Source: Dactylellina haptotyla
Lineage: Eukaryota > Ascomycota > Orbiliomycetes > Orbiliales > Orbiliaceae
DNA length: 64,000 bases
Reading direction: 5' to 3'
Assembly: GCA_031310005.1 (NCBI GenBank)
Contig: CM062388.1
Span: forward strand, 868,001-932,000
Made by a program: the position numbers and the translations under genes. Below, in pieces: positions 23,119 through 64,000 of this stretch. Below the pieces are notes generated by a model. That model was not told the origin of the DNA, ran no database searches, and worked only from the letters and a program-made list of their open reading frames with translations. Each line of letters starts with the position of its first letter. The stretch's first letter is position 1.

Positions 23119-24467
23119 CTAAGCTGCACGTGCCTGGACTCCCTTCTGGGCTAGGTGAAAACCGAAGGGTATTAGACCGTTGCGGAACATGTAGATCCCA
23201 GACCCCTCATTTCCCTCAGTTTCTTGAACGAAACGGCAAGTACGCCGATTTTTCCAAAATGCAGCCCAAAAGTTAGTCTTAACATCCGCTTTATAGTGCT
23301 CACCCATTACTTTTCTGATATGTATTGACGCTTCGGCAGCATGATAGAAAGGGATGGTCGAGACAAGGTGATGACAAACGTGAGTGCCAATGATGCTATG
23401 GAAGAGATGTCTATCAATGAATCCAAGATCGCGATCTATGGTTGCAGTTGCCCCACGGGCAAATGTCCATGAATTATTGTCGTAATGAGGCAATGATCCA
23501 TCCGTGTGCTGCAGAAAGGTAAGGGCAACTATAATCGCTTAGTATCATCCAACAATATCAGAGAATTGCAGAGAAAAGCAGGTAGTCACTTACCAATCCA
23601 ACTATTCGCCCATAACCAAGGGATTCCCCAAAGCAAAATGATTTTCCAGCTTCCGAAAAGTTGACCGGCAACGACAAGACACGCAATCATGCAGGCAACT
23701 CCAATGTCAGAAATTAAAATTAAGCCTAGTTCATTCTCTTTATACAAAATACTGTCCTTGCCGAAATAAAAATGCGACGCAGTAAGTCCGTTTTCGGGTT
23801 TGAATTCCTGTCCTGACGCATTAAAAAGGAGGTAGGCAGGCCAACCAAGCAATTGATGCCATATATCTTGACACAATGCCATGATGGGAGAATCCTCGGC
23901 AAGTTCAGAGAATTCGATCCCACTCAATATAGCTTGCTCTCCGAATTTGGCTTTGAGCCACGACTCTTTAGTATGAGGCACATGGGCAGTATCTTTTTCG
24001 ATATTGCCGGTTGATTTATGATGTTGCGAATGGGTAAGGCGCCACGAGTGGAAGGGCACAAGAAGAAAGGAATGGAGTATAACTCCTATACTCCAGTTCA
24101 GTTTCTTTGACTTTGAGAAGGCTCCATGGCCACACTCGTGTGCTAGGATCCAGATACCCGTGAAGACGAAGCCTTGGACGGTGGTGTATGCAGCCCAGGC
24201 AATAAACCGGAGATGGATATGAGGAATTTGAGGAATGTATGTAACAGCGAGGTACATCAAGATAGTGAGATAGGCTGCATCGCGGGCTACGTATGAGATT
24301 GAGCGAATGATGGAAGGCTTGAAACAGTGAGGAGGAATAGCGTCGTAGATTTCCTTCATTGTGAAGGTGGGCAATTCGAAGACATTGCCTAACAAATCAA
24401 GATGATGTGGCTCAGCAGCCCTGAAAACTAGCTTTTCAGCCTGAGTGGTAGCTGTAACTGAGGCCAT
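23119..24467 (-). CDS. Delta-12-type fatty acid desaturase
   Basis: Two exons, 24467-23594 and 23528-23119, give 427 residues. The three di-iron histidine boxes are intact: HECGH (110-114), HSQHH (146-150) and HVCHH (341-345), with hydrophobic membrane segments between. The lead-in TFTMKEIYDAIPPHCFKPS and the C-terminal DRHLFHSIIGTH match fungal oleate (delta-12/omega-6) desaturases. Known reaction: insertion of a second double bond in oleoyl chains using cytochrome b5 electrons. The family also includes bifunctional desaturases and acetylenases of secondary metabolism, so regiochemistry is not certain. Start: the ATG of MASVTATT; an in-frame ATG 17 codons earlier is possible. Placement in an AT-rich island between P450 and HMGR-like genes suggests an accessory rather than housekeeping copy. 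Confidence 0.9.
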
Positions 24468-28479: not shown

Positions 28480-29474
28480 TTCGAAAAAATGATGAAAGTA
28501 ACTATTCAAAAAGAAGATTTGGGGAATATAGTAAGAAGCTATTCTGGACGGCCAATAATCTATGCGGTCTGAATGCTCGCAAAAGAGGTCGAGTGACTCG
28601 GTTTTCATATTGTTGGAAGATCTTATATACTTACCCGTAGCTTTACTAGGGTCAAGATGAGCGCTCTTAATACTGGCTGAAATGCGAACTTAGCCTGGAG
28701 GCTCACAAGGAGCTAATAATCAGCAATCTAGCTACTCTTCCGCGCAAGATTAAAGTTTCCTATCAGATGATCTCACCGCCAAGAATATAACGTACCAACT
28801 TCTACTGTAAAGCACCATATTTTACAAGTACATTCTAACGATACTTAGTACCTTCTTGTACCTTATGAAAATTCTGTACAATGCAGAAAAGTCGGCTATC
28901 TCATTGCCGCTAGCTCGCTGCTAAAATACCACAAAAAAGGTACGCATAGTTATAGACTTTTCTTTACTTTTACTGTGAGACTACAGCACCCAACCGAGGT
29001 CTTCCAAGTCCATACACAGATCATTGCTACAGTTCCGCGCGAAAATGCATACTTTTCTAGCTGCAGCTAACTATAGGATCCCGTTCGCATGATACAATTA
29101 TGTAACATCTAATAGATATCGGCGCATCAAACCTCCGTGCGCCTTGAACTATCTATTTTTTGAATTTGTTGATTGCCGCAGGAAAGTCAATTGATATGAT
29201 CACAGGAGCAGAAAATAAAAAGTTAGCCCTGCTCGGCTAGTTTTTAGGCACTAGTGGTGAGAGGCCGTAAGACCAAATCCCGTCTGAGAATTCTCGAGTC
29301 TCTTCGATCACTCTACTTTTTCGCATTGCTATTACATTTCTTCACAGATATACACCAAAGTCCTCGACTTACATATGCAAGTAGTCGAAGCACTATAAAA
29401 GTAAGCCACGCCTTTCAAATTTACAGCAAACTCAATGCAAAATTGTTTCCCTTTATAAATATTTTACCATAATC
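28480..29474. promoter_or_regulatory. Divergent HMGR-like / FAD oxidase promoter region
   Basis: This 1.0 kb interval separates two divergently transcribed genes, a common arrangement for co-regulated cluster genes. It is AT-rich with no open frame of note. A TATA box for the oxidase lies at 29394-29400. Confidence 0.5.
29394..29400 (+). promoter_or_regulatory. Probable TATA box of the FAD oxidase gene
   Basis: TATAAAA about 80 bases upstream of the oxidase ATG, in good position for a short leader. Confidence 0.45.
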
Positions 29475-31106
29475 ATGGCCATTGCTACTATCAAGAATGT
29501 CGTTGGAGAGCAGTACACCAAAGAGACTGCAGAATATGAAAGTCACTATCGTCAATTCGCAACTTCTAGTGTTGAACCTGATGATCGAATGCACCCAGCA
29601 CTCATCGTTGTTCCCAAGCATAAGGAGGACATCGCGACGGTTCTAAAGTATGCAAAAGCAAACCGAATCGCTGTTGCTATCAGAACTGGTGGAAACCAAT
29701 ACAGTGGAGCATCTTCCACCCAAGCTCCTAATATCCAGCTGGATCTGAAAACTACATTTCAAGATTCCAGTGATAGGGTCATTTTCAAAGAAAAGGACCA
29801 AGTTTTAGTTCGCACCAGCGTCAGCTGGTGCCTTGGAGAGTTCCAAGCATATCTTGCACTCTATGGCCTTTTTGTCCCACATGGCCAGTGCATTGATGTT
29901 CGCCTAGGTGGGCATGTTCAAACCGGGGGATGGGGCCAGTTACAGCGCAGCTTTGGTCTCTTCGGTGATCACGTTACTTCTATCGAAATCGTCGACTATA
30001 ATGGGAACTTCGTTACTGTTACCGCTACTAGCGACAAGGACCTATTCAGCGCTATTCTCGGGGGCAGTCCTGGAAATTTCGGCGTAATTACCCATTTCAC
30101 TGTGAAAGTCTACCGAAACGAAGACAATCAAGGTTCACGAGGCCTAAAATCTCTGTTTTGGTACAACACAAGTACGCTTAAAAGACTTCTTGACATCACT
30201 GCTAAGATGTCGGATGACAAAAACCTGGGAAGAAATTACGATTATTGTCTTACAATTATGAGTGAAGGCAACAAAGTTTTCGACTGTCTCCCACCGGAGC
30301 TTGACGCACTGATGCGCAGTACATATCCTCAATATTATAATAAAGACGGTACTCCCAACCCACCAAGAATCATTGTTGCATTTGCGCAGTGGGTACCATT
30401 CAGCAAGAATGACAAATGTAACGAAGAGTGGTTCGAACAAATACGCGAGGGCTCGGTTTTCAATCTCCCAGTCCAAGAGCTGCCCATGTCGTCCCTTACC
30501 CAGCAGTGGATCTTCCCACTTAGCCGTGAGTTCGACCTACCATATCGTAAATGGATCCAAGTCACCAATTCAACCAGTCTCGTTGCGGATGGTTGGTCGC
30601 GTTGGGTCACGGACCGCGTGGACGCCATTGTCAAACCTGACAATGGATGTTTCCTCTCCGCTCAATTCCAGGTACTAGGAGGCAAGAATTCAATGTTCAG
30701 GGCGAATAGCGGTAACTGTACTTCATACAGCTGGCGTGATTCGAGTCTCCTAACTACTATGGACCTGTACCACGAGCCAGCCCAAAAGCAAGTAGCTGAT
30801 AAGTGGCAAGCTGTCAATCATCAGGAAGGTATTGGTCCCAATGGAAAATTCTGCAAGTCAGACCGTCGAGTACTTTGGGGCTCGCATGGCAGCTTCGATC
30901 TTGACGCCAATTGGAGGTTGTACTTTGAGCATGAAGCTAAGTACAACAAATTGAGGTCGGTGAGGAGCAGAGCCGACCCCGATGGAATCTTCACGCCCAA
31001 CACATTTTGCGTAGCAAGACAGAGTGTCAGAGGCGGCGGCTCGCGAAGTTCCGGGGCGCAAACCGCTATGCGCCGTTATCATTTTCCTTTTTCTTCGCGA
31101 TTGTAA
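29475..31106 (+). CDS. FAD-linked oxidase, berberine-bridge-enzyme-like
   Basis: Single exon of 543 residues. The FAD-binding PCMH (VAO-type) domain covers about residues 35-215, with IRTGGNQYSGAS and later GGHVQTGGWGQLQRSFGLFGDH and ILGGSPGNFGVITHF. A C-terminal berberine/BBE-type segment ends in RADPDGIFTPNTFC. In related oxidases the first motif normally reads GGH, the His carrying the 8-alpha FAD link; here it is Asn74. The second attachment Cys is present in GQC (Cys139). A single covalent link or non-covalent FAD is therefore likely. No clear signal peptide is present, so it is probably intracellular, as in biosynthetic clusters. The last about 25 residues are low-complexity. Substrate unknown; the family oxidises alcohols, aldehydes or amines, or performs oxidative cyclisations. 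Divergent from the HMGR-like gene. Confidence 0.9.
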   Translation: MAIATIKNVVGEQYTKETAEYESHYRQFATSSVEPDDRMHPALIVVPKHKEDIATVLKYAKANRIAVAIRTGGNQYSGASSTQAPNIQLDLKTTFQDSSDRVIFKEKDQVLVRTSVSWCLGEFQAYLALYGLFVPHGQCIDVRLGGHVQTGGWGQLQRSFGLFGDHVTSIEIVDYNGNFVTVTATSDKDLFSAILGGSPGNFGVITHFTVKVYRNEDNQGSRGLKSLFWYNTSTLKRLLDITAKMSDDKNLGRNYDYCLTIMSEGNKVFDCLPPELDALMRSTYPQYYNKDGTPNPPRIIVAFAQWVPFSKNDKCNEEWFEQIREGSVFNLPVQELPMSSLTQQWIFPLSREFDLPYRKWIQVTNSTSLVADGWSRWVTDRVDAIVKPDNGCFLSAQFQVLGGKNSMFRANSGNCTSYSWRDSSLLTTMDLYHEPAQKQVADKWQAVNHQEGIGPNGKFCKSDRRVLWGSHGSFDLDANWRLYFEHEAKYNKLRSVRSRADPDGIFTPNTFCVARQSVRGGGSRSSGAQTAMRRYHFPFSSRL

Positions 31107-35150: not shown

Positions 35151-38100
35151 ATGGCAACCAAAACACACTGCGCCTACACGATAGGATGGATCTGTTCGCT
35201 CTCTAAGGAACTCGCCGCGGCGACGGGCATGCTTGATGAACAGCACGGCGAACTACCCAACCCGCCGAACGATAGTAACAACTACACGTTGGGTAAAATT
35301 TGGAAGCATAATGTCGTCCTCGCGTGTCTGCCCAAAGGGAATGCCGGCGGCGTTACAGCTGCGGCAGTGGCCGTGCAGATGGTTAATACTTTCCCTAACG
35401 TTAAGTTCGGTTTATTCGTTGGTATTGCAGGTGGGGTGCCGGGGAAATGGAGGGTAAGGCTTGGCGATGTGGTGGTTAGTACGCCTTTTGGGGAGTTTCC
35501 GGGGGTGGTGCAGTGGGACATGGGGCAGGTGGAAGCTGGAGGGGTGGTGAAGAGGATCGGAGCGTTGAATAATCCCCCAAAAGCGCTGCTGGCGGCGTTG
35601 GCGAAAGTGGAGACTCAACATGAGCTGAATGGGACGAAAGTGCCGGAGTATATTAAGGAGTTGGGGGGGAAATATCCAAGATTGAAGCGTGCTTTGGATA
35701 TTACGGGATTGGAAGACGTTTTATTTAGGACGGGATATGGACACGTTGAAACTCGACCAGCAGACTGCGATGGGGAGGAGGACGAGGAGGACGAGGAAGA
35801 TGACGATGAGCCAAATTGCAGGTACTGTGAGAAGAGTAAAATATTGAAGCGGAAAAAACCAAGGCAGATGAAAATTCACAATGGGTTAATTGCTTCTGGA
35901 AACAAGGATATTAAGGATTCATCACTCAGGGACGAGATTAACATGACCTTTGGTGGAAGTGTTCTCTGCATCGACACTGAGGCTGCAGGGTTATCAGAAG
36001 AATTTCCTTGTCTTTTTATCAAGGGAATATGCGACTACGCGGACTCGCACAAAGATTCGAACAGAGGCTGGCATAATTACGCTGCGGCTGTGGCGGCAGC
36101 ATTTGCAAAGGAACTACTTGAGCAGGTCGCCGTGAGAGATGTTGGAGAGGAACGGCCAGTGAAAGATGTTATACGAAAGAGTGAGCTCATAGATCCACCC
36201 TTTGATTAGATGTAATCGACATGCTAACTATCAGTTGGCGATGCGGTTGTAAGAATTGAAGAAACGGTGGCAAGAACCGGAGATATAGTCAGCAAAGACG
36301 AAGATTTGAAAATTCTCAACTGGCTGGCTCCGACCGACCACGGTGCTCAGCAAGCCGACAGTATTAAACAGCGACAAACCGGCACTGGGAAATGGTTGTT
36401 AGACTCTGAAGAGTTTCAGAGCTGGATGAATGGGACCAGGCAGACACTCTTTTGCCCTGGTATTCCCGGCGCCGGGAAGACGATCCTTACCTCAGTCGTT
36501 ATTGATCACTTGCAGGAGATATTTGGAGATCAGCCGAATGTCGCTGTTACGTATTTCTACTTCAACTTTGGATACAAGAACGCGCAAAAACCCGAAAGAG
36601 TATTGGCTAGCCTTCTACGGCAGTCAATTCAGCATGGATCCGTTATCCCGTCTAAGCTGAAGGAGGTATTCAAACGGTGCCAAAAAACTAATGCGGGATT
36701 GAAATTAGAGGAGATGGTCCAGATTTTGGAAGACGTCTTGGAGTCATACGAAAAGGTGTTCATAGTCATAGACGCACTGGACGAAGCCGAAGAACAGGGT
36801 GGACCTAACGGTTCGCTAGCGAAGATATTCAAACTTCAAGAAAAATACAAGATAAGCATATTTGCAACCTCAAGGGACATCCCAGAGATCAAGAAGATGT
36901 TTGAAACTGCAAAGTCACTGAGAATCCGCGCGACTAATGAAGACCTGGATATGTATATTGCGGGTAGAATTTTTCAGCTTCCAAAATCCATCTCACGGAG
37001 TGAAGAGCTTCAGAAACTAGCAAAGATCAGAATACGAGATGCTGCGCAAGGCATGTAAGTATCATTTACTAGGTAACAAATTTTCAAAGACGTCACGTAT
37101 GCAGGAGTCTAACATAAACAATGATGATGATAACAATTAGGTTCTTATTAGCTCGTCTACATTTGGATTCTCTTGGAGGTGTCTTATCAACCAAAGCCGT
37201 AAAGGCTGCATTAATGAATCTCTCTACGGGATATGATTCAGCATACGAAAATGCTATGGAGAGAATCAATAACCAAATGAAAAATTCTCGGGATGTCGCT
37301 CTCCAAACTCTCTCCTGGATTACCCATGCCGAAAGAAATCTTACTCCATCTGAGCTTCGGCTCCTACTTGCCATCGAGGTTGACACTTCCGATTTTGATG
37401 AAGAAAACCTCCTAGATACTGACGACATTGTCTCATTATGTGCTGGCCTGGTTGCCATCGACGATCAAAGTAGAACAGTCCGATTGGTACATTATACCAC
37501 GCAGGAATACTTCGAACGTACATGGGAAAAATGGTTGCCGGATTCCCAGGATTTTATTACCAAAAAGTGTATTACCTATCTCTCGTACGATAGGTTCCAA
37601 ATTTGGCCAGAAAAACAAGGCGTCTATAAACTGAATACGAAAGACGAAAACGACGATCTCCCGTTCTTGAAAATATTGGAATATTGCGTCGAGTACTGGG
37701 GCAATCATGCACAGAAATCGAAATCGGACGGACAGGAGATAATATATAAGTTTGTTGAGAGCGAGCGTGGGACTCGTGCTGCCCGGTATGCAGTTCAAAA
37801 GGTGCAGTATGAACTTTTTGTCGAAATGGGAATTCTATATTTCCTCGACGACAGGGCCTTGGGTTACAACGAACCCGTCATATGCATAGATGACATGGCT
37901 CTTGTGCAACTTAAATTAACTCTTGAAGAAATACCGTCGGTACAAATCGCTGCATACTTCGGGCTATCTAAGTTGATAGAAGCCGTGCTGTCGAACAGAT
38001 TAGGCTTACACAAAAGCACTTGGTTGGGGATACCACCTTTGATAATAGCTACTCACAAGGGACACAGAGCAACAGCCGTGTTTCTTATTGATCGGGGTGC

Positions 38101-39472
38101 GAATCTCGAAGCTGAATATTGCGACGAGACAGCACTGTCGATAGCGGTGAAAAAGGGAAATATTGATATAACTAGATTACTCCTCAATAGGGGCGCCAAG
38201 TTGAAATTGAGCGAGTGGCTTGTTCAGGAGTATTTAAATCTAGCTGCGAGTCGAGGACAAGATGCAATGATCGAAACCCTCTTACAACACATCCCACAAA
38301 ACCAAAACCATCCAAGCTTTACACAGCCGTTGCTCATAGCTGCCGAAGGTGGGCACGAATCAGTCGTCAAAATTCTTGTGGGAAAGGGTGTCAACTTAGA
38401 TGCTAGGACAAAAGCAATGCACCTGGCTGTTAGTAACAAACATGGAGTAATTGCACGATTCTTGATGGATACCGGAGCAGACTTTTCCAATCTTCCCGAT
38501 ACCCACCGCGATCAACTCCCACTGCCTACATCGACCAATCGAGACCTAGTTAATTTTTTTAAGGGGTCTGAGGGGGCCCTTAATCCGGAGGTTAGAGCCA
38601 ACCCTACTTGGACGCAATTACAACTAGCCGTATTCCTTGGACACATTTTGGCAGTGGATGTGTTATTGAGACAAAGCGTATACTTAATCGAAGCGAAAGA
38701 TGAAGATGGCAATACACCAATCTTCCTTGGTATCATGAGCGGGAATGTCGATATGACTTTGTCACTCATAGAATCAGGCGCTGACACCAAGACCGAAAAT
38801 AAAGATGGAAATACACCACTCTTCCTTTGTATCATGGTAGGGAGTACGGAATTAACTAAGTTACTCATAGCTGCAGGCTCTATCGTCACGGCTAACAATA
38901 AAGAGGGCAAAACTCCGTTAATGATAGCGGCTGAGTATGGGAACGAAGCAGCCGTAGAGATTTTAGTGAGTTGTGGCGTGGACTTACGGCTAAAGCATAG
39001 TCGAGCTCGCGAAGCATTAGGGATGGCCATCGCCAACGGGCATAAACGCTTAGTTCTACAGCTGATAAATATATTTTGCGATATGAACTGGTCTCCTCGA
39101 GCCAGACGACACCGATTGATAGATCTAGACTGGCCTTTTTTACAACCCCAGCCGCCCACACCATTTGGGGTAGGGTTTGAGAGATACCTCGATCCGAACC
39201 ACCTTATCAATGATCTCGTCGAGAACGATATCTTGCCATGCAAGGACGTCTTAATAAGCGAAGAATTTAATGAGATAGATTTCGAAGATGAGCTAGTCGC
39301 CAATCCATTTAGAGGCCTCACAGCGTTTTATTATCGAGTTGCGATAAACAATTATGGGACTCGTTTTTGTGAACCAAATTCGGAGTCCGAATCAAGAAGG
39401 GAAATATATGATTGGATGAAGGGTAACTCCCCTCCTCCAAGTTGGCGGGTGAAAGATGTAGATTACGGTTGA
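35151..39472 (+). CDS. PNP-NACHT-ankyrin NLR-like receptor
   Basis: Three exons, 35151-36180, 36235-37054 and 37141-39472, encode 1393 residues. Domain order: an N-terminal nucleoside-phosphorylase-like (PNP_UDP) domain, about residues 8-330 (YTIGWICSLSKELAAATGML, GIAGGVP, RLGDVVVS, LIASGN, EAAGL, GICDYADSHK). Next is a NACHT NTPase, about 410-560, with Walker A GIPGAGKT and Walker B FIVIDALDEAEE, then a winged-helix-like region with LVHYTTQEYF. Last are ankyrin repeats, about 890-1250, several degenerate (for example NTPLFLCIMVGSTELTKLLIAAG). This is the architecture of fungal NLR-like proteins, many of which act in non-self recognition and regulated cell death. An acidic, Cys-containing insert (DEEDEEDDD, CRYC) splits the PNP domain. 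The nucleoside-site run reads CIDTEAAGL; related proteins usually have a Met where the Thr is. Confidence 0.93.
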
Positions 39473-47530: not shown

Positions 47531-50500
47531 ATGCAACGACTTAATATCATTATATCGGCGCTTTTCGCCTTTTTTTTGGCAATTGCGCGGGTCGAAGCCC
47601 GACATATGGAGTATGGTCACCATCATGTCCACTATGCGCGTCAGGCCCAGGCAACTCCCTCGCCGGTCCAGTCTGGGGTAGCGACAAACTGTGTCAGTTG
47701 GGCGTATGTTCGATCCACAGACAAGTGCACAGATATCGTTTCCAGATACTCTGCCTCATCAGGTATCACACAGGCCAATCTTATCAAGTATAACCCTGCA
47801 TTGAAGACCGACTGCTCCGGGATCCTGGGCGGTACCTACCTCTGTATCAAGATTGATCCTACGAAGACCACAACTACCACAAGGACAACTACCACAAGAA
47901 CAACTACCACCGCGTCCCCGGTTGCTACTCCTTCGCCAATTCAGACCGGCACAACGGCCGGTTGCATCAATTGGGCATATGTCCGTTCAACTGACAAGTG
48001 CGCCGATATCATATCAAGATACGGCTCATCCGGAATTACGCAGGCCAACCTTATCAAGTGGAATCCGGCACTAAAGAGTGACTGCTCTGGTATTGCTGGT
48101 GGATACTTTGTTTGTATCGCGGTCGATCCCACCAAGACCTCAACCACCACCACAAGGACCACCACCACCACTATCTCTGCTCAGGCCACGCCGTCTCCAA
48201 TTCAGAGTGGCGTGACTGGCCAGTGCATTGCTTGGGCATACGTTCGATCTACCGACACTTGTGCCGCTATTGTTTCGCGATATGCATCAACTGGCATCAC
48301 GCAAACCAATTTGATCAAGTATAATCCTGCTTTGAACAGTGATTGCTCTGGCATCCAGCAGGGGTATTTCTTGTGTGTTCAGATCGATCCTTCGAAGCCT
48401 ACAACGACCACTACCACAACCACTACTCCTGTCGCTACACCATCGCCAGTTCAAAGTGGTGTGACAGCCCAGTGCACAAATTGGGCATATGTTCGTTCCA
48501 CGGATAAATGCGCCGATATTGTGAGTCGATATGGCGCGTCGTCTGGTGTCACCCAATCCAATTTGATATTGTGGAATCCGGCATTGGGCAGTGATTGCTC
48601 CGGAATTCAGGGCGGGTACTTCGTCTGCATTGGAATTGACCCCACGAAGCCAACGTCCACGACCTCGTCTACCAGCACTTCTTCCACGACCACCACGACC
48701 TCATCCACGACTACGACTACTACTACTACTACTACGACCACTACAACCACTACAACCACCACGACTACTACGACCTCGTCTACGACCACGACTACAAGCG
48801 GAATTGCCACCCCAAGCCCAATTCAGTCAGGACAATCCTCGAGATGTAATAGCTGGGCTTACGTCCGATCCGGTGATACTTGTTCCGCTATTGTCTCTCG
48901 ATATGCGGCTTCTTCAGGAATCACCCTACCAAACCTGCTTACATGGAATCCTGCCCTCAAGAGCGATTGCTCTGGAATTGCCGGGGGATATTTTGTGTGT
49001 ATCGCGATTGTTCCCTACTGGGTTGATGCTATTTCACATCAAGGCAAGGCTCCGTATGGTGGAAGTGGATATCAGGTTTACAGAAACGTCAAGGATTTCG
49101 GAGCAAAGGGAGATGGTGTTACGGATGATACCGCCGCAATCAATAACGCCTTCTCATTTGGAAGTCGATGTGGTTTGGGCTGCGATTCTTCGACCACCAA
49201 ACCCGCTTTGGTTTACTTCCCTCCCGGAACGTACTTGATCACTACTCCGCTCATCCCGTACTATAACACTCACGTTGTCGGTGACCCTATTGATCTTCCA
49301 CGTATCAAAGGCCGAGGTGATTTCCAAGGTATCGCTCTTATTGATAGCAACCCATACAATGGTCCAAACAATTGGCACGGCCCCACCAACAACTTTTATA
49401 AGGTGATCCGCAATCTCATCTTGGACACACTCGAGATCCCCGCAGGCAACTATGGTACCGGTATCCACTGGCAGGTAGCCCAAGCCACTAGCTTGCAAAA
49501 CCTTGTCTTCTACTCCAATAATTCCCCAGGAACCCACCACCAGGGTATCTTCATGGAGAACGGATCTGGTGGTTACATGTCGGATCTTGTCTTCAATGGT
49601 GGTGCCTTCTGTGCATGGATGGGTAACCAGCAGTTCACCTTGCGAAACATTACCCTCAACGACTGCGACACTGGTATCTACCTCAACTGGGGATGGAACT
49701 GGAACTTCAAATCAGTCACTGCCAAGAATGTCCGCGTGGGTCTTGATATTTCTCAGATCAACGGCGATGCCCCTCCAAGTCTCAATGTTGGTTCTGTGGT
49801 TCTTGCCGACTCCAAGTTTACCAATGTTCCAATCGTTGTTAGATCAACCAGAAGCTCTTCGACAACGCCAACCACTGCCAACTCCTTGGTGCTCGACAAC
49901 ATTAACATTAGCAACTGCCCAATCATTGTTGGTGACACCGGGAATGTCAAACTCGCAGGCACCACCGGCTCTACGACAGTTAGCATGTGGGCTCAGGGAC
50001 GACAATATTCTCAGTCAAACCAAGCCGGTTCCACAATGCAAAGTGCTTTCACTGGATTTTCTCGCCCAGCTAGCCTCCTGGACGCCAGTGGCAAGATCCT
50101 TGAACGCAGCAAGCCAAACTACGCCGATTATACCGTTGACCAGGTCCTCAGCGCACGTACATTGGGTTGCAAGGGTGACTCTTCCACCGACGACAGCACT
50201 GCCCTCCAAGCCGCTATTAACAAGGCTGCTGCGGAAAGCAAGATTCTTTACATTGACTACGGTATCTACGTCGTCACCAAGACTATCTATGTACCACCAA
50301 ACTCCCGCATCATGGGTGAAGTCTGGCCAGTCATTCTCGGCACAGGCTCCGCTTTCACTAGCACCTCCAGCCCAATCCCTATCGTGCAATTCGGAAGACC
50401 AGGTGATACTGGATTCATCGAGGGTACCAACTTCATTGTCAGCACTCGCGGCGCAACAAAGGGAGCTATCCTTATGGAATGGAATCTTGCGACCCCCAGC

Positions 50501-51417
50501 GGTACACCTTCCGGTCTCTTCGATGTTCACGCACGTGTTGGTGGCTTCACCGGTTCCAACCTCGATGCCTCAACCTGCATCAAGACCCCAGACTCCACAA
50601 CTGTCAACCAGAACTGCGCAGCAGCATTCATGCTCTTCAGAGTCGGACCTCTTGCATCCCGCGCATTGTTCGACAACTGCTGGTTTTGGACTGCCGATCA
50701 CGATCTAGATCTTAGCGCACACAGTCAGATCACCATCTTCACAGGTCGTGGTGTCCTCGTCCAATCTACTAACCCAATGTGGTTCTACGGTACCGCATCT
50801 GAACACAACGTTCTCTACCAGTACCAATTCAACGGTGCTTCGAATGTCTACATGGGTCTCATCCAGACTGAAACTCCGTACTACCAAGCGAACCCTGCCG
50901 CGCCGTTGCCATTCACTATCGACGGCTCATGGGCCGATCCAGACTACAACAGTATCTGTTCCGGCGTTGGTGGTGCTGCGACCTGCAAAAAGAGCTTCGG
51001 AGTGAGAATCAATGTCTCGAGTAACATTCTTATCTACGGTGCTGGCTTGTACAGTTTCTTTGATAACTACTCTTTAAGTAAGTAAACCTTCCACTCTACC
51101 AACCTTGGTCTCAGTCCGTTGGTATCACAAACCATCTTGTGTACCTTTCGCCTGAATGACCTTGTTGGAATATTCGCAACTTTTGTGTTGAATTCCTGCT
51201 AACGCTATTTTTCAATAATACAGCCTGCAGCAATGGTCTTTCAAACACCTGCCAGACATACATGGTAGTCATCGACGAGAGGTCAACCAATATCAGACTC
51301 TACAATACCAACGCCAAGGGTTCTGTCAATATCTTGACAACTGGCGCAGGCTGGAGCGCCAAGACAGATGACAATGTCAACACCTTCGGTGGCACTGTCG
51401 CTCTGTACCAAGTTTAA
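47531..51417 (+). CDS. Secreted five-LysM / GH55 beta-1,3-glucanase-like protein
   Basis: Two exons, 47531-51077 and 51224-51417, encode 1246 residues. A signal peptide (about residues 1-23) is followed by five fungal LysM (CBM50) modules at about 54-108, 145-200, 231-286, 315-371 and 438-494. Each has the pattern CxxWAYVRSxDxC, NPAL, DCSGI and a closing C(I/V). They are separated by Thr-rich linkers, the longest at about 375-425. The C-terminal half (about 514-1246) has two pectate-lyase-3-type beta-helix segments starting NVKDFGAKGDGVTDDTAA (about 519) and TLGCKGDSSTDDSTAL (about 876), the hallmark of GH55. Known GH55 activity: exo- or endo-beta-1,3-glucan hydrolysis. LysM modules bind chitin or GlcNAc oligomers. 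Likely secreted and wall-bound. The modules are very alike, indicating recent internal duplication. I did not confirm the catalytic Glu. Confidence 0.92.
48646..48802 (+). repeat. Thr-codon microsatellite encoding the longest linker
   Basis: ACC/ACT/ACG triplet repeats, with TCC/TCG interspersed, encode an almost pure Thr/Ser linker between LysM modules 4 and 5. Such tracts are usually length-variable between strains and would be heavily O-mannosylated, giving a rigid stalk. Confidence 0.75.
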
Positions 51418-51841
51418 ATAGCAGCAAATCGGAGAGGGGACGAGAGTGCGGGAGCAAGAGAGGTCGTTGATGTTTGGGAGTTTCAGCATAGCATATGACG
51501 AGAACCTGCAGGTCATTTCTTTCTTTTTTAAAATTTTATAGCTTTATCTTTTAAAATATTTTTTCCTTTGTAGGTTACATACACATCCAAAACTAAAATC
51601 TTAAGTATCGATATCGTCATAGTGTTGGATATTCTCATGTTTCTCATAATTTTATAAATAGTGTGTAGTATGAACGTTTTATGAATTTTGATTCGTACAA
51701 TGAAAAGTTGCTCCAGATTTAACTAGAGCCATCAAATTGCTGCCAATAATTCCCCGCCCATATCAAGAATCGGTACAGTGTCCGTAAAAATTCATTAACA
51801 AATAGATGTTCCTTCGAAATCAAGTGTGATAGATGAAAATA
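51418..51841. other. Convergent 3' intergenic region
   Basis: A 0.4 kb AT-rich gap between the stop codons of two convergent LysM-enzyme genes. It should hold both 3' UTRs. No gene is seen. Confidence 0.5.
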
Positions 51842-54679
51842 TTAGACAAAGTAGTATCCTAGCAAGCTTTCGGGTTCTGGATTCGGTGCTGGCACAGGAT
51901 CTGGTGTAGCCGATGGCCGCACCCAGATCGTTGTCGTTACGACTTCCTGGGTCGAATTGCTGGCAACAGTAATATTGGCAAGAGCTCCTGGAACCGTTGT
52001 CTCCTGGCCATCGAGAAGCTTGGGTTTCGACAATTCCGTTGGCACCTTGACACCACAGTTCTTCTTCCTGGTGACCTTGGGTCTCAACTTGAGCTTGCCA
52101 AATCTCGGTTTCTTGGTCATATCGTTCGGAATAACGACTTGGGTGTTTGTGACACCGATTTTGAGAGTGGGGAGGCTGGTCACGGGGACGTCCTGGCCGT
52201 TCTGTATTTTCTCGTTAGAACAACAGAAATAACTAGAATAAGTGAGGTAGTAAACTTACATTGTAGACCTTCCAAACCAAGTTCGTAGCAAGTAAGGTAT
52301 CAATCTCGGTATCATTACCGGTCATTCCCTTCTGCTGAAGGAACGGCGTGAGAGGAACAGAGCCAGTCGCGATACTTGAAGGCATCTTACGACCGTCCAT
52401 ACCAAAGATAGCCATTTGACCAATCCGTTGCTCGGAGCAACCCCATTGGGCGGGATCACTGGGCGGCTCTCCCCAGAAGATATAGATAGCATAACTGCCC
52501 GAAAGTTCAGACACATCAATAACAATATTGGCGTTCCATTTGGTAATCGTAACGTCGGTAGAAGTACGCTTGACACGGCTCTTGGGTGGCAAATTCAATG
52601 ATCGGTATTTAGTGTTAATCTGTGAGGTCGTAAAGGCGTCAAGTTGAGTGTCAGTGTTTGATTGACGGCTGCAGGGAACCTCAGGATACCCGTAGCCGTA
52701 GTTCCACATGGTGCGCACGCTGGCAACGTCGTTAGAGGTCCAGTATGCTCCGTTCGAGTGCTTGAATGGATAGAGAGGAGTTGTTGCGGTATCCGTCATA
52801 CCGGCATTTCTCATGAAAGTGTCGTATTGCATCACCTGATTGACCATCCTGACATTAGGGTTCGCGGCTTGCCACATGGCAAAAACACGGTCGACGTTGG
52901 TATGATGTAGCCTTGGACATTGTTAGAAACGACCGGATATGTTAGGTTAGGGTTGGGGTTACCAAAAAAGAGGATCGAAGGCCGAATAGTCAATAATTAA
53001 CATCATTCCTCCGACGTCGCTATGTATGGTATTGTGAACGTTCTCGATCAAGCGATTCGCATTGTTGTATCCGCTGACAGATACTAGTGCGTCATACAAA
53101 CCATCACCGATCCTATAATCAGCAATAAGATTAGTTGTAAGTTTCTATTTGATATTCTGGTCAGACCCATTGCTTTACTTACGACGCAAAGTCTTGTTTG
53201 ATAGCGGCCTCGGCATTAGAGCCTCTCACTACCGTAGTTGCTCCTTTAACGCTCTAATTGTCGTTAGCCAAATTAATGATGTAAGAACTCGAGGATTCTG
53301 ACATACATTTGAAGATGCAAAAATCGAATTCTCTCCTGTTTTGAACTTGTAGGTGTAGAATGGGTTGCTGATGGTCTTGGTGCCAGTAGGTGTCACTACG
53401 GAGATCGTAGGTTGTTTAACAATAGCAGGGAAGGTGCCCCTGGCTGTGGCATCCGCCCAGTCCCAATAACTACATTACCATGTAAATCAGCATCAAGATC
53501 GTTGTTTTAATTAGCTTGTGCTCAAATTACTAACGGGAATCGAAGGTTCTTGGCAGCAGCAACATATCTCGCTCTATTAGATGCAGGAAACTGGTTTGCG
53601 ATGCCTTTAGCGAGGTCATACAGAGTTCTCTATTGGAAGTATTAGCAAAGCATCCATCGAAATCCTTGACTGTCAATTTCATATTATGCTTACTTCGAAC
53701 AATAGCATATACGGCCGATGCCAACTGGAAAACTAACGTCCTCAAAAAATGGTTAGTATAAATGGAACGAGAATATAATTTAAATAATAAGACGTATATT
53801 CCACATACCAGCCCGCTGGTGTGGGTACAGTACCCAACATATCTGTTACCTCCTGTTGCTTTCGAATTCGGCCAGGGGACATATCTATACCATATCAAGT
53901 TTAATTGTTAGCTCAGCAAGATGATTTGGCGTGCTTGAACGTACGGAGCACCATGGATTCCTATTTTTACATTTTGGTTTAGCTATGTGGTCCGAAACTC
54001 GTTTAGATTTAACATCGGGATTTTGATAATTACCTCCAAGTTGATAAAAGCTTAACGGATTGCTAGTGTTGGAACTTTGCATTTGAGCAAGCGCAAGGAT
54101 AAGCATGTTGAAAACATCTGGCTGCGAAGCTTGCATCGTGTTGATATTTTGTCTGTCGACACAAGTGCCATCCTGAATACCATCAACGGTAGTAGTTGTA
54201 GCGATTGGCGCAGGCGCAGCTGTCGTAGCAGGTTGAGCGGTCGTTTTCGCTGTGGTCGTTGGCGATACAACGCTCTTGCAGATAATATAATTCTGATAGC
54301 GAGGCAAATTGGCGCAATTATTTGCCAAAAGTCGATTGTTGCTATAAAAAAATTTGGTTTCTTCAGCATCCGCTATCACTCATTCCAAATATATTATCTA
54401 TTTGTGAGAAAGATTTTCATACAGTAAAAGGGCCTGAGTGGTTATCTTATTTCGAGCAGCGGCGGTGGCGCAAGTATCGCCGGCTCGAACACGATCACCA
54501 AAAGTCCTACAAGTACCAACATATAACACCGCCTGAGCTCGTATATGCAACCTCTGTTCCGCTCCGTGCAAGAATCTCTCGATATCTTTTTGGAACGGGT
54601 AAGCAGCCACTGGCTCAATGACCGCAGTCATCGAGAGGGCGCATACAATGCCCTTTAAAACGAAATTGTTGAATATCAT
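51842..54679 (-). CDS. Secreted LysM-tyrosinase
   Basis: Eleven exons: 54679-54423, 54341-54034, 53960-53945, 53884-53809, 53732-53694, 53629-53535, 53469-53307, 53253-53183, 53112-52963, 52911-52260 and 52201-51842. They give 728 residues with every phase matching. A signal peptide (about 1-26) is followed by a LysM-like module (about 57-110; RVRAGDTC, NNRLLANNC, closing IICK). The tyrosinase domain keeps CuA ligand motifs GIHG, YCTHTSGLFSSWHRPY and CuB motifs HNTIH and SAFDPLFWLHHTNVDR. The last two exons form the tyrosinase C-terminal region. Known reaction: o-hydroxylation of monophenols and oxidation of diphenols to quinones, feeding melanin or cross-linking. The copper sites look complete, so it should be active. 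The 16-base third exon carrying GIHG is small but needed for phase. A TATATA element lies at 54751-54756. Convergent with the LysM-GH55 gene. Confidence 0.9.
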
Positions 54680-57043: not shown

Positions 57044-60000
57044 TTATAGATACGGCATCCACAAATGATCTGTCTGCGCCAGGTTGGCGGGATTCACCGC
57101 CTTGCTAATCAAATCGATAACAGTCTGGTTCGCAGGTATCATTGCCGTATTATTCGCGCACAGGGCCGCGGTACGTCTCACTATGATCGTGCTATTGACG
57201 TCCACCTTTTCTCTTATCTTGGCGTCGGCCGCCATGCTGCTGCGATGTTGCTGTGTGAACCAGAAGATCATCTCGTCACGTACAAACAGCGAGAGGTATT
57301 GCTCAAGCTCGAACTAAAGATAATCCATGTTAGCCAGTGTTACTAGTAAGTTAGAATAGAGCATTTTATATACCTCTGGCTCAGTCAAGCATCTTGCGAT
57401 TGCCATAATGGCGCATGAATAGATACCCTCCACAGCGATTGGCCCCATCAATGTGTGTAAGTTAGGCGTCAGGCGGAATGGCACAGGTTCATTATTATGG
57501 AAATAAGCGTTGCTCGCTGCCATCGCAGGGATCAACTCGGTGCCCCTAGGCGTCAGGCGGAATGGCACAGGTTCATTATTATGGAAATAAGCGTTGCTCG
57601 CTGCCATCGCAGGGATCAACTCGGTGCCCCAAATGTTTCCAGTAGCCTTGGCGATGAACATCTTGTGCGGGAATCGATTGTTCATATTCATAACGTATGT
57701 CATAAACGTGAGAGCGGCGAACTGGTAGGCGAATTGGCGACGGAAGATCCAGAAGTCGTCGAATGAGTTATACGAAGCTTGCATGTACTAAAGATAGAGT
57801 TAGTAACCCGGCGGGCTAACAGTACGAGTATACAAAAATAATAACTTACGTCTTGAACCACAGTGCTCGGTACCGTCTTCTCTTGAATAGCGCTGAGCAC
57901 TTCCATCTTGAGATTCTGAACTTCAGGACCGCTCATTTTCTTGTTCACATTGTTCCTGAGGCTCTTCATCGCGTAGATGAGCGGATCATCCTTGCTGATG
58001 CCTGTCTTTCTGCAGTAATCTTCATATATTCCCTGGAGCGAAACATATGACGCATCGTCTTGAACAATTCTAATATGCGGGGCGAGCGGAATCATCAACG
58101 GAAGGTGGAATCCCAGGTTTCGGCGTCTGGCTTCCTTGCGCTTAGAGAGAATTCCGTTGAAGATACGGAACAATTGCGCGACTCTCTCCTCACGTCTGCA
58201 GTGGCGTTGGGCAGGATGCTGAACAGCAAAAGCGTGAACACTACCATCATGGCCTCTCATCTTCAATCTTCGGTGGCAGATACCATAACCACGAACAACG
58301 TCTACCCGCGGCAAGAACCTCTCAATGCGTACAAAGTCCTTGTTGTGGTCTCTATGCAGGAGATATTGTCCGGGAACCTCGACCTCCTCGAACTTCTGGA
58401 ATCTAAAGTCGCTGAGATGCGGCGAGAATGATTCCAAACTAGCGTGAGCTGGTCGTCTGTCAAGCTTTTCTTCGAATCGGTCTCTCCATCTGCGCAGTTT
58501 CTGGATGTAGCTCTGGAGATTAGGCTTCTCATGTACAAATTCAGCTTCGAACGCCACACGGATATGAGCCGGGAGAATGGTCTCAGCGAAACGTGTTATG
58601 TTTGCCTCCGTGGCAGGAGGAAGCTTCGTGTCTTCAGGAGATGCTAGGGGAATACGTCCGACAAACTAGATAATATATGATTAGTGAAGCTCCCCCAAAT
58701 ATGTTTAAAAAGGTTGTACATACCTGCAATCCGTCATTTAACAGTGCCACGATCAACCTATACGCATCTTCATCCGGGGGACATTTGAAGTACTTGTGAA
58801 TCTGATCTCCCATGGTCTCCATCGACAAGGCCAACAGCGGGAAGGCGGACTTGAGCACCGACATGATCTCATCAGCATGCTCCCAGGGGTTCTTCTTAGC
58901 TGGCGCCGGACTCTGAGGCGCGGAGGAGGATGCGTTTGCACCATTAGCGGTAGCCGCCCCGTTAGGTTGATTTGGAGTCTCCGGTCTCGTTCCAGCAGAA
59001 GAATCGGGTCTTGGGGGACTGGCAGCGCTGCCAGCTGCTGCGGAGGGCGCGGGAGGAGAAGCCTGGGTACCATTCGGCTTCGCCTTTGCCTGTTGTGCCG
59101 TCTGCTGTTTCTTGATAACGCTATAGTCTTCTCGAGAGGTTCTGAGTAAGAAGTAGAGTGCCTGTGGGAAGTTCTTGGCAATCTTGAGCAAAATTCCCTT
59201 TGCAATCTTCGCTTCCTTGTGAGAAAGCGAGGAGAGGAGCTGTGGGATATATGTAATCCAATACCACACTGGCATTTCGCCTTTGTATGCCTCAAAGGCA
59301 GCTGAGATAGTGCCGTTTGCATCATCGAGACTGAGGAGCCACAGAACTCTGCTAAGGAGCTTTCTAGCTTTACCGCTCTTGTATAAACCAGCAGCTTCAA
59401 GGTAGCAACTAACTGCATTACCGGCAGGCTGCAAGTCACCCGGATTGTCTTTGAACACAGTATCGTTGAAGAAGCCCCACTCAGCCCAAGCCTTTGGCAA
59501 CTTGAGATCGTAGAACAGAGCGGTTCCGAAAGCCTCGTTAGCTTCATCCTTCTTTGCCAGCTTGGCCTGGAACATGCCCTTGAGCGTGTAGAACTCAGCC
59601 TTCTGTTGCCCAACGAAGTAATTGAGGTTGGTATTGTTGATGACCTCAAGTCCGTTATTGAGTTCGGCGGGATTCTGGTAGTGGCATTTCGCTTGCTCCC
59701 TCAACTTTAGGAAAGCCTCTTGGATCTCGATATTCGGGAGAGTGTAAATCTTGCTCAATTGTGCAATGCACACATCTGATAGCTGGTGTTTCCTGGCGAC
59801 ATGCGCGAACCTATTTATGATCCACGCGGTTTCATGATAACCACGGTAGGCATATGAATTGGAGTTGTTGTTGCCACCGCTGGCAGGCACCAAAGGCAAG
59901 TACGTCTTATTGATAGATGTGAATACGTGCTGCCTCCAGGTGACGAGATCGTGCCACGCGTTGATATCGTCCCAGACATTAGGTAGACGATCTCTCCATG

Positions 60001-63000
60001 TGCCAAGATTTTGCTTGAGTTCTTGCGATCTGACATCCAGGTTCTGAGCAGTGGTGTTCGAAAGGCTGCTGTACATCACACTAGCATCGTGGAGTTCAAC
60101 AATCTGCTGGAAGGTTTGCAAAAGCGGAATATGGGCGGCTGTAATCTTCTTTGGCAGATTATGCCATTTCCTCAAACTGAGCTGGATAGCCTCGTCGCAT
60201 ATTCTCAGGAAGTCGCTGTTGCTCTCATTCTTGCTATGGACTTTCTGAAGTGCCATAAACGCAAGGAAGAAGTATCGTCGTGGAGTAGGCGAATCCATCA
60301 AACTCTTGATAGTAGTGTCCACCGCCTCGCTGCTCTGGCCACCCCAGTCGTCCAAAAGTCTCCATGCACACTCAAGAAGCAAATCATTGTAATTTTCGTG
60401 CTTGGCAAAGTCGCTGAGAATCTCCCATTGCTGGAGTTTCTGGGCGCAAAGAATCCAATGATCCTCCCAAAGCATGTACTCCGCCTGCGAGAACGGCAGG
60501 ACACCAGTACGGGCTTTGATCTGGGCTTGCTCATAAGCGTGCTGGGCTTTGTCCCACATGCCGTTTTGCTCGAACGACAAAGCGACGTTGGTCTCCAAGT
60601 ACTGGCATCGTCGTCTCCACAAACCGTAAAACATGTCCTCTTCCTGGATTCCAGCATATATTTCCGCCAACGCATCAAGATTGCTCTCCTTGATGGTAGG
60701 GTTCTCATAGGGAGGTGTATTTGCCGAGTCCTCCAAGATGTGCAACGCCGAGTACCAGGCATTGAACGATTTGCTGATATATTTGATAAGATGAGGTGGA
60801 AGAATAATGCGAGGATTGGCTCTCTCAATACCGGCCAACAAGCTCTGGATAACATTCGGTCGCTTATCCATTTGCCTATGATGGCATTCTTTAGAGAGTA
60901 GGGTGATCATGCTTCTCGACAGGTCATTTCGATCTTCCTGTCCGATAGCCGCCCAACAAAGTGGGAACAGAGTAATCCAGATATCATGCGCAACATCCGA
61001 GGAAAGATGTTGGAGTTGGGCAAGCGAGTCGAAGACGTCAGAGGCCTTGACATCACCAAGACTAGCCACAAAGCGTCGATGGCGAACCATGAAGTCTTCA
61101 TACTGATCCTCGAGCATGATACTAGAAGTATCCCTCTTCTTCTCAGAGACAAAGATGGAAGAAGCGGAAGGTAGCTTGAAGTCTTCGGAATGCAATTCAA
61201 GCCTCCTATCCTTATCCACACATCCCAATAGCAAATGCGTAACTTGACTCAACCAGTATGAATCCTGCAAAGTCTCCCAGTTCTGCGTGCCCAAAAGATA
61301 CGATATTCTCGGGTTGATGGTCCGCGACAAGCTCTCGGTAAAGATATTCAAGAACCGATTGCGCATCTTGACTTCTTGAGCCCTACATCCTATGAGGAAA
61401 GCATGTTCAAGACGCACGGTCAGCTCTGTTCTGGTGATCTCCGGATGTTCGTAAATGCTGATCACCAATTCCAGGAATTTGTTGCACAAAGTAGAATCTT
61501 GTCGGCCTTCGAACGACATCATTTTGCTAAGAACAGCCGTCTTTTCTTTCAGCGTCGGGAAACTCTCTGTCGACCGGAATACCCAGTTCTCAACGACTCC
61601 AAGTATCTTGAGACACAGTTCATTGTTTGTTGACTTTTCAACCAACTGTGCCAAAACACTCAGGAACGGTCGTCGCTGGTCCTGGAGTGAAGAAATCCTT
61701 GCGGAAGCGATATCGATAACATTCGAGATCAGCTTAAGCGCTGTATCCGGATCCAAAGGTGGTGGAGGCGGTTGCGCATCTGCAGCAGGCGGCTGTGGGG
61801 CCGCGGGAGCACCTCCAGCGATATGGTCCCTAGCCAGTCTCTGGAAAGCCCTCATGAGTGCCGGAATATGCGCATCAACAGCATCAGGCCGCTTCTTGGC
61901 CAGAATCCACAGAATGTTGATGCTAGGAATGACACTGACGGCAATAGTCTCCTGCACAATCTGCGTCAATAACTTGACAAACTGCGATCCAGTCGACTCC
62001 GTCATCTCCTCGTCCTCATCGTCCTCCTGCTCCTGCGGAATGACCTCCAAAATCCTCAACACCACATCCTGCAACGCCTCCTGGATATCCACATTATCAC
62101 ACCTCAAACTCTTCTCTAAGATTTTCTGGAGTGTCGTGATCCTCTCTCTGCCCGCTCGATCTACTCCGAGCAGCCAGTCGTTCGACTTGGCCTGCACGAT
62201 AACCTTCAGCACCTGGAGCATATTGATAAACACATGCGCGTTATCATTCTTCAACTCGGCTTGCATCAATTGCGCCTCAGCCTGCTTCTGGTAGAGATCC
62301 ACGTCGACATCACCCCAGTACTTCGGCTGCAGCAGGTTCTCCAAAAGCTTGAGCGACCGCTCGCAGAGCTCATTCGAACTCCACTTCTCCGGACACGTTG
62401 AAATGAACGAAATCAAATGCTTCAACACTGACTGTCGGTACTGCGTCTGCAAGACCACATTAACTTTCTCCCCACCGCTCGAACTCGGCGGCGCCGAAGG
62501 TGATGACCGGCCTGTCTCATCTGGCAGCTTGCGCTTCCGCATCTGCGGCGAGTCCATCATGGTGATATCAACAGGGTTATCGATCGCCTGCTGCTCCCAT
62601 TTCCAAATCAACTCGACAAGATCAATCGACAAAGTTTTGTGTTCCGCCGAGGGATTCTGTACGTGAAAGACAAGCTTCTGTAGCGCCGACACCATCCCCA
62701 TGAAGAAATGCTCCCTTGATTCGTAGAACAGGTTCGCATGGCGGACGATAAACTGGAAGATGTTGATGAGTTGTGGCTGGTTGTGCGATTCTTCGATCAA
62801 TATCCTTCTTGGCCACTTAGCCCAAATTGGAAATCCCTTGGAATCGGCACCAGGTGGGATACGCTTCGGAAGCACAGGCGCGATGAGATCTAAAGCTTGT
62901 CGGACCAGTGTTCGACCCTCAGGTTGATGGGCTTTGAGTAACGCCACATAAATCTGGGTAACAATCTTCGCCGGGGTTTCGAAATGCGCGATGAAGAAAG

Positions 63001-64000
63001 CGATGAGAACATAAGCGGCCTGCTTGTTGATGATGTCTTCGAGCTTGATAAAGTTCCACCCAAATTTGATAACATCTTTTCTCGCATCTGCAATAATGGA
63101 ATGATGATGCTTGATGAGCAGCGCAGACATTTGCAGAACCTCCATTCTCGAGCGGTCGAGGCCGTTCTGTCCATCGTCCAGATCCCCCAAGTTTGTCTTC
63201 CAGATCTTATGATGTACCGCGCTGACTAGCTGGGAATCAACGAGTCTCGGTCCGTCACCGTCAAGCCCTCGTCGTTGAATATCCATTAATAGGATTGGAT
63301 TGACCAAATTCTTGAAGGCGTACGTCTTTAGCATCTGGTTCTGCGTAGTATCCTGGTATAAATCCAAGCACTTGAAGATAACGCTCTTCCAGTACTCGAT
63401 AGACTTGCTGCAGATAATATTTTCGTAGATAAAATGATCGAGAAGATAATTTGACTTGAGGCTTCCCGAGCTAGTCGCTTTGATGACCTGGAACAGAAAG
63501 TTGAGATCATTCGGCTTCTGGATGAGGTACTTTGTAAAGATCGAGATGAGCGTGGTAGAAGACTGGTCGACGCTAAGGCACAGCGACGGCGGCTTTAACT
63601 CCCCATTAACGGCCTTAGTATAAACATCGGACCCAACAGTGAGCAATTTATTCAACAAATCCTTATGGTCAACCAACCAATCGGACTTGTGCTCGCAAAC
63701 CGCGCCGACAGCTTTAATCGCATTGAAAATCGCCGTCGTCTTCGCCTCACCGGTAGTCTCACTATCAAACGACGCCTTGATAAGATCGTTGATATTGGCG
63801 ATAAGATGATCTCTCAACGGCCCGCTCGACTCGTCCGCCAACAACTGCGCGAACAACCGGCCGTACTTCATCACCGTCAACCGGGTGAGCATGTACTTCC
63901 ACGTATCCTCCGCATACCGGTTCACAAACTTCAACAGCGGAAGACGGAACGGCGAAATCTGTGTCCGTCGCAGACTCTCCTCGAGCCCCAACACAGTCTG
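57044..64000 (-). CDS. TRA1: TRA1, SAGA/NuA4 scaffold pseudokinase (3' part)
   Basis: Partial gene running off the right edge. Exons are 64000-58724 (open at the edge), 58665-57850, 57787-57374 and 57313-57044. The visible part is 2258 residues of a protein usually near 3800. HEAT-type helical repeats are followed by a FAT domain (about 59.6-61.0 kb), a Pro/Ala-rich linker (about 58.9-59.1 kb) and a PI3K-like domain ([56 protein letters not shown]) ending with a C-terminal FATC-like tail. As in all Tra1/TRRAP proteins the DFG and catalytic Asp are absent. Known role: activator-binding scaffold of the SAGA and NuA4 acetyltransferase complexes. A second proline-rich insert lies at about 61.75-61.82 kb. 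The pseudokinase domain contains an exact in-frame 28-residue tandem duplication (57463-57630), reported separately. Confidence 0.96.
57463..57630 (-). repeat. Perfect 2 x 84-bp tandem duplication inside TRA1
   Basis: Unit 1 is 57463-57546 and unit 2 is 57547-57630. The units are identical base for base and are a whole number of codons (28). In translation the run [20 protein letters not shown] and the following VPFRLTP occurs twice, joined by Arg; only the second copy continues into NLHTLMGP. Other Tra1 proteins are expected to have one copy. Identity at every base, including third positions, indicates a very recent event or an assembly error. Confidence 0.95.

What the first reader, a model, noticed from the sequence alone, without database searches (positions are those of the whole stretch)
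47531..54679. Convergent pair of secreted LysM fusion enzymes (5xLysM-GH55 and LysM-tyrosinase)
Two neighbouring genes both place N-terminal LysM (chitin-binding) modules on different catalytic domains: a beta-1,3-glucanase-like GH55 and a tyrosinase. They end only about 425 bp apart. The sequence shows the domains and the pairing. Known family activities suggest a two-enzyme wall module: LysM anchors to chitin, GH55 trims beta-glucan, tyrosinase makes quinones for melanin deposition or cross-linking. Co-function is inference.
Basis: partly seen in the sequence, partly recalled or inferred. Interest (0 to 1): 0.75.

Follow-up and report, generated by a model that had tools for sequence, protein, structure and literature searches.

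The report
LysM-tagged glucanase beside LysM-tagged tyrosinase
A close relative of the nematode-trapping fungus Dactylellina haptotyla carries, side by side, a gene for a glucan-cutting-enzyme family member with five LysM modules and a gene for a tyrosinase-family protein with one worn-down LysM; the LysM parts likely hold each product on cell-wall chitin, but the two likely work separately, because no tyrosinase found in three related fungi appears to lie beside their LysM glucanase.

Summary
In detail: a 1246-aa 5xLysM-GH55 gene (47531-51417, +) and a 728-aa LysM-tyrosinase gene (54679-51842, -) converge with 424 bp between stops. The fungus is a close relative of Dactylellina haptotyla. Both catalytic families are certain. 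All five GH55 LysM units are modelled as beta-alpha-alpha-beta, though only one passes Pfam alone; the tyrosinase LysM is single, divergent and below cut-off, but homologous to a Pfam-positive LysM of a paralogue. The two-enzyme-module reading is not supported: LysM-GH55 is conserved in Orbiliomycetes, yet in three testable relatives the tyrosinases found sit on other contigs, and chance adjacency is unremarkable (P about 0.08). The test is partial. LysM-GH55 fusion is already in print for other fungi. The better lead is wider: in this genome related LysM units also sit with GH16, a GLEYA adhesin domain, GH18 and other tyrosinases, and the GH55 units resemble units of other genes here more than those of GH55 orthologues. 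That suggests an old, mix-and-match wall-retention tag. Secretion, chitin binding, localisation and activity are inferred.

The parts
47531..51417 (+). 5xLysM-GH55 gene, exons 47531-51077 and 51224-51417, 1246 aa
   Evidence: C-terminus after the splice aligns to the end of 5m5z
47690..47848 (+). LysM unit 1 (residues 54-106)
   Evidence: (13.2 bits)
47963..48118 (+). LysM unit 2 (residues 145-196)
   Evidence: (13.2 bits)
48224..48379 (+). LysM unit 3 (residues 232-283)
   Evidence: (19.1 bits)
48473..48631 (+). LysM unit 4 (residues 315-367)
   Evidence: no Pfam match alone
48845..49003 (+). LysM unit 5 (residues 439-491)
   Evidence: (25.5 bits, over cut-off)
49013..51417 (+). GH55 catalytic region (residues 495-1246, intron 51078-51223), GTASEH motif at residues 1087-1092
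51418..51841 (.). 424-bp stretch between the two stop codons
51842..54679 (-). LysM-tyrosinase gene, 11 exons, 728 aa
   Evidence: 96% to H072_5928
54275..54511 (-). single divergent LysM of the tyrosinase (residues 57-108; split by the intron 54422-54342)
52866..54055 (-). tyrosinase central domain (residues 182-407) with candidate copper histidines
52151..52538 (-). Tyrosinase_C domain (residues 517-626), the latency-type C-terminal domain

Best explanation
In a fungus close to the nematode-trapping Dactylellina haptotyla, two convergent neighbouring genes encode a GH55-family protein with five LysM modules and a tyrosinase-family protein with one divergent LysM; each product is predicted to be secreted and held on fungal-wall chitin by its LysM, where the GH55 would trim beta-1,3-glucan and the tyrosinase would likely oxidise phenols or tyrosyl groups, most likely independently of each other. 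Steps: (1) both leave the cell through N-terminal signal peptides (inferred by eye; no signal-peptide program was run). (2) The GH55 carries five LysM beads on Thr-rich linkers, so that several weak chitin contacts add up (fold modelled, binding inferred). (3) Its GH55 region, 719 bits to a solved beta-1,3-glucanase (shown), would act on glucan in a chitin-glucan wall, the fungus's own during remodelling or a prey fungus's (inferred). (4) The tyrosinase has the build of latent mushroom tyrosinase with a C-terminal domain (shown on a 96% identical protein); it would be clipped outside the cell and make quinones that darken or cross-link surface layers (inferred). (5) Adjacency is more likely local accident, or mild clustering of wall genes, than a dedicated unit (inferred).
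Against: No binding, localisation, secretion or activity was tested. 4 of 5 GH55 units and the tyrosinase LysM miss Pfam's cut-off singly; the tyrosinase LysM lacks the N-P run of the GH55 units, so it may not bind chitin. LysM loci cluster somewhat: 2 LysM-LysM pairs within 7 kb against 0.089 expected, P 0.005, the window's own pair being one of the two, which leans a little towards a functional neighbourhood. D. haptotyla's own GH55 neighbour could not be seen.
Confidence: 0.6

Rival explanations
1. One reading: a dedicated two-enzyme wall module, in which LysM parts bring both enzymes to the same chitin, the GH55 opens glucan and the tyrosinase cross-links or melanises the site.
For: Adjacent, convergent, both LysM-bearing. 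LysM loci and GH55-LysM loci are near each other more often than a uniform model gives (noticed afterwards).
Against: Tyrosinases found in three relatives are on other contigs than the LysM-GH55. Chance of at least one GH55-tyrosinase pair within 7 kb is 0.077. In neither LysM tree does the tyrosinase unit stand beside the five units of its neighbour. No shared promoter region.
Confidence: 0.12
2. The GH55 protein is mainly a chitin-masking, LysM-effector-like shield and its GH55 part matters little.
For: LysM effectors are described as binding wall chitin and shielding hyphae from chitinases (PMC8003418, passages). Multi-LysM genes without any Pfam enzyme domain in the stretches scanned carry the nearest units (C1:5785854, C1:4735690).
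Against: The catalytic region is 61-74% identical across six relatives and keeps the GTASEH motif in all 14 aligned sequences, as expected of a working enzyme.
Confidence: 0.1
3. A prey-directed enzyme: the LysM array brings the GH55 to walls of other fungi (mycoparasitism) or the tyrosinase acts on nematode material, and neither is for the fungus's own wall.
For: GH55 substrate beta-1,3-glucan is a fungal-wall polymer (established knowledge); tyrosinases are raised during nematode infection in D. haptotyla (Monacrosporium haptotylum): 5 tyrosinase genes in the upregulated-over-10-fold set (PMC3828140 Table 2, passages).
Against: LysM-GH55 also occurs in relatives of different trap types and in Dactylella; own wall offers the same polymers, and nothing here separates the two.
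Confidence: 0.18

Closest known systems
LysM (CBM50)-GH55 proteins of other ascomycetes: Raffaelea (PMC7441637) and probably Penicillium expansum PEX2_003000 (PMC5662087); passages seen
   Same: LysM together with a GH55 / PF12708 or pectin-lyase-fold region in one protein; the P. expansum protein is 1258 aa with 2 LysM
GH55 beta-1,3-glucanases with solved structures (5m5z, 3eqn)
   Same: Whole 750-residue catalytic region, GTASEH motif
   Different: The query carries a 5xLysM array in front; the solved chains match only its catalytic region
Latent fungal tyrosinases (Agaricus AbPPO4, Aspergillus oryzae melB)
   Different: An N-terminal LysM is added; the matched chains align from model residue 118-119 on, behind it
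LysM-GH18 chitinases
   Same: LysM on a wall-acting enzyme; in this genome C8:3335030 has GH18 E 1.7e-41 and LysM in one open frame
   Different: Catalysis on chitin itself; that LysM was found by Pfam only, not by the GH55-type unit
Fungal LysM effectors
   Same: Cysteine-bearing fungal LysM
   Different: Effectors are described as LysM-only proteins; both proteins here carry enzyme domains

Membership tests
Glycoside hydrolase family 55 | Full-length double beta-helix catalytic region alignable to solved GH55 enzymes | tested here: met
   residues 496-1245 to 5m5z, 719 bits; 495-1242 to 3eqn, 609 bits
Glycoside hydrolase family 55 | Catalytic acid motif (GTASEH; role recalled) | tested here: met
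   E1091 and H1092 invariant in 14 aligned sequences; E kept in both solved relatives
Glycoside hydrolase family 55 | Activity on beta-1,3-glucan | not testable with these tools
   needs an assay
LysM (GH55 units) | Profile match over Pfam cut-off | tested here: met
   whole protein 52 bits; singly 1 of 5 units passes
LysM (GH55 units) | beta-alpha-alpha-beta fold | tested here: met
   five modules in the model, block pLDDT mostly about 80-90
LysM (GH55 units) | Chitin binding | not testable with these tools
   needs pull-down
LysM (tyrosinase unit) | Profile match over Pfam cut-off | tested here: not met
   14.7 bits in the protein, 18.9 alone, cut-off 20.9
LysM (tyrosinase unit) | Homology to an accepted LysM and LysM fold | tested here: met
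   E 2e-13 to the N-terminus of H072_2935, whose LysM scores 28.3 bits; fold in the H072_5928 model
Tyrosinase (type 3 copper), latent fungal type | Central domain with two copper sites | tested here: met
   PF00264 E 2.4e-43; histidines in IHG, CTH, WHRP, VHNTIH, LHH found, ligand roles recalled
Tyrosinase (type 3 copper), latent fungal type | C-terminal latency domain | tested here: met
   PF18132 E 5.2e-25; fit to latent AbPPO4. Latency itself not testable
Conserved two-gene module | Adjacency kept in relatives | tested here: inconclusive

The most novel reading that the evidence does not exclude
Nematode-trapping fungi use one lineage-specific LysM cassette as a shared wall-retention tag: related cassettes are bolted onto unrelated surface proteins (GH55 and GH16 glucanases, a GLEYA adhesin-type protein, several tyrosinases, uncharacterised multi-LysM proteins), and within a genome cassettes have been exchanged between genes while catalytic domains were inherited vertically. 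It would be a fungal counterpart of bacterial LysM wall anchoring, beside the GPI route, and would put glue, cross-linker and wall-cutter on the same trap surface.
Probability: 0.3. Interest if true: 0.68.

Novelty: new variant of a known kind. Interest (0 to 1): 0.42.

Why it matters
How nematode-trapping fungi keep adhesives, enzymes and cross-linkers on the trap surface is open. If LysM is a general wall-retention tag in this class, one binding assay on one cassette would bear on adhesion, wall remodelling and cross-linking together, and LysM could be used to list surface proteins of any such genome. As a plain gene pair the finding is ordinary.

Tried and rejected
Two-enzyme module: not supported. 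Tyrosinase LysM donated by the neighbouring GH55: not supported; the quick tree sets it with H072_2935, the careful one beside O. oligospora and A. musiformis GH55 units with weak support and a very long branch, in neither beside its neighbour's units; its place is unresolved. Other tyrosinase LysM units are not cleanly apart from GH55 units either: H072_2935 and C2:4089590 fall among units of this genome, on long branches. Recent gene conversion between LysM units: rejected, 8-15 of 13-19 comparable four-fold sites differ in each of the 19 pairs printed (pairs at 70% or more protein identity). LysM-GH55 as an invention of this class: rejected. H072_5928 in papers: 0.

Rows dropped before counts: 10 of 37 tyrosinase matches and 5 of 23 PF12708 matches were left out as further exons of listed loci; of the 9 PF12708 loci two (C8:3078721, C8:3242196) are single weak fragments and may not be GH55; of the 24 LysM loci some found by Pfam only (C5:2379607, C6:1915932) look like ordinary non-secreted LysM proteins. 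The first LysM profile held one row with two units by mistake and was rebuilt. Two units were left out of the 51 for the trees; further cut 49 to 34 by leaving out tyrosinase and other long rows. AU groups were chosen after a first tree was seen, so p values are optimistic. In the 49-unit set the 16 own units as one clade were neither shown nor rejected (p 0.159). In one search the E-values of P0001, P0003, P0005, P0010, P0038-P0041 and P0044 are flattered, as units of theirs built the profile. No match covers the LysM as a fold of its own; that is no evidence either way.
Full report
What is there. The window lies in a 39.8-Mb, 11-contig genome (C10:868001-932000). Its tyrosinase is 96% identical to H072_5928 of Dactylellina haptotyla, and another tyrosinase locus is 70-95% identical, exon by exon, to H072_2935, so this is a close relative, probably not that strain. 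The GH55 gene runs 47531-51077 and 51224-51417; the tyrosinase gene has 11 exons from 54679 down to 51842. The genes converge, 424 bp between stops.

GH55 protein. Pfam gives PF12708 at E 2.4e-88 and LysM at 52 bits. Against solved structures the region from residue 495 on scores 719 bits to 5m5z (Beta-1,3-glucanase) and 609 to 3eqn (Glucan 1,3-beta-glucosidase), GTASEH motif kept. A model of exon 1 (mean pLDDT 73.6) has five beta-alpha-alpha-beta modules at 54-108, 145-198, 232-285, 315-369 and 439-493, separated by low-confidence Thr-rich linkers. Singly only unit 5 passes Pfam, so the count of five rests on homology to it and on the model.

Is the pair conserved? The GH55 searches list six LysM-bearing relatives, 61-74% identical in the catalytic region, then a drop to 50% or less among the best 120 listed of 3312 hits (one search listed 120 of 2089). 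All six are Orbiliomycetes. Of 150 GH55-family hits held, 6 have this LysM; of 37 tyrosinase hits, 7 do, all Orbiliomycetes. In A. musiformis (same strain by tag), A. entomopaga and D. cylindrospora the tyrosinases found have other contig lengths than the LysM-GH55. O. oligospora records are from different strains and O. brochopaga gave no tyrosinase hit, so neither could be judged; D. haptotyla's LysM-GH55 was not among the hits. Uniform placement gives 0.08 expected GH55-tyrosinase pairs within 7 kb, P(at least one) 0.077. Leaning the other way: 2 LysM-LysM pairs within 7 kb against 0.089 expected, P 0.005, one being the window's own; and two further GH55 loci with a LysM locus 4.4 and 5.9 kb away, Poisson P about 0.003. 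Both were noticed afterwards.

The wider pattern. LysM unit 1 finds 39 matches in the genome, Pfam LysM 7; with the window tyrosinase they form 24 loci. Among them: a GH16 domain with LysM units next on the same strand (L035, C7), one open frame with LysM and GLEYA (L020, C4), one with LysM and GH18 (L023, C8), and LysM units on the same strand upstream of three other tyrosinase loci (C7:329377, C2:4089590, C2:4314089), making 4 of 27 tyrosinase loci with the window's. Of 20 tyrosinase loci fetched, 2 showed LysM; six more were judged from search tables only. The GH16 and the C2 tyrosinase fusions rest on order and strand, introns not modelled; C7 follows H072_2935 from residue 1 on. Six of nine open frames scanned had no Pfam match at E 0.001, so even LysM there rests.

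Cassette exchange. The five GH55 units are at best 54-63% identical to units of orthologous GH55 proteins but 71-77% to units of other genes in this genome, while the catalytic region reaches 74%. In a 34-unit tree the 15 units of this genome group together (91/73, not decisive); the clade of all GH55 units is rejected (AU p 0.011), so is that of the five own units (p 0.004); in the 49-unit set p is 0.023 for all GH55 units and 0.159 for 16 own units. Only 53-54 columns, groups named after a first tree. Four-fold sites are widely changed, so any exchange is old, or selection holds the units alike.

How it likely works. See Best explanation. Shown: genes, families, modelled folds, conserved motifs, class-wide LysM-GH55. 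Inferred: secretion, chitin binding, wall retention, glucan trimming, latency and activation, quinone formation. Context: tyrosinase, WSC and GLEYA families are reported as expanded and expressed in nematode-trapping fungi, and tyrosinase cross-linking of the trap's extracellular layer has been suggested (PMC3828140, passages); tyrosinase is among proteins raised in the knob (PMC4237727, passages).

In print or not. LysM with GH55 is reported for Raffaelea (PMC7441637, passages); P. expansum has a LysM protein with pectin-lyase fold (PMC5662087, passages). A LysM-tyrosinase fusion was not met in the listings (20 of 35 papers listed) and 34 or in passages read; LysM with GLEYA in one protein not in the listing. 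Listings and passages only, no whole texts, open-licence papers only.

Verdict. Observation confirmed; the pair as a functional unit not supported, though the test is partial; the shared LysM tag across unrelated wall and surface proteins is the lead worth keeping.

Noticed in passing
L035 (C7:2004190-2007384) and L020 (C4:2858070-2861213): LysM units with a GH16 domain (same strand, neighbouring open frames) and LysM with a GLEYA adhesin domain in one open frame.
   Followed up: partly
G000 C10:2202299 / 2207959 and C8:1483785 / 1491483: Two further GH55 loci have a LysM locus 4.4 and 5.9 kb away; both GH55 loci align to the window's catalytic region.
   Followed up: partly
G000 C8:3329921-3330595 and L023 (C8:3335030): A three-LysM gene lies about 5 kb from a LysM-GH18 chitinase gene.
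   Followed up: no
whole genome G000: At least 27 tyrosinase loci by Pfam, a large family for one fungus.
   Followed up: no
window 37118-39469 (+): Large ankyrin-repeat protein with a GPIID winged-helix region, NACHT/ankyrin-like by look.
   Followed up: no
window 57703-64000 (-): Tra1-type gene (Tra1 ring, FAT, PI3/PI4 kinase), a housekeeping neighbour beyond the tyrosinase.
   Followed up: no
window 17898-18782 (+), 23589-24596 (-), 29385-31103 (+): Cytochrome P450, fatty acid desaturase and FAD-binding oxidase open frames in the first half of the window.
   Followed up: no
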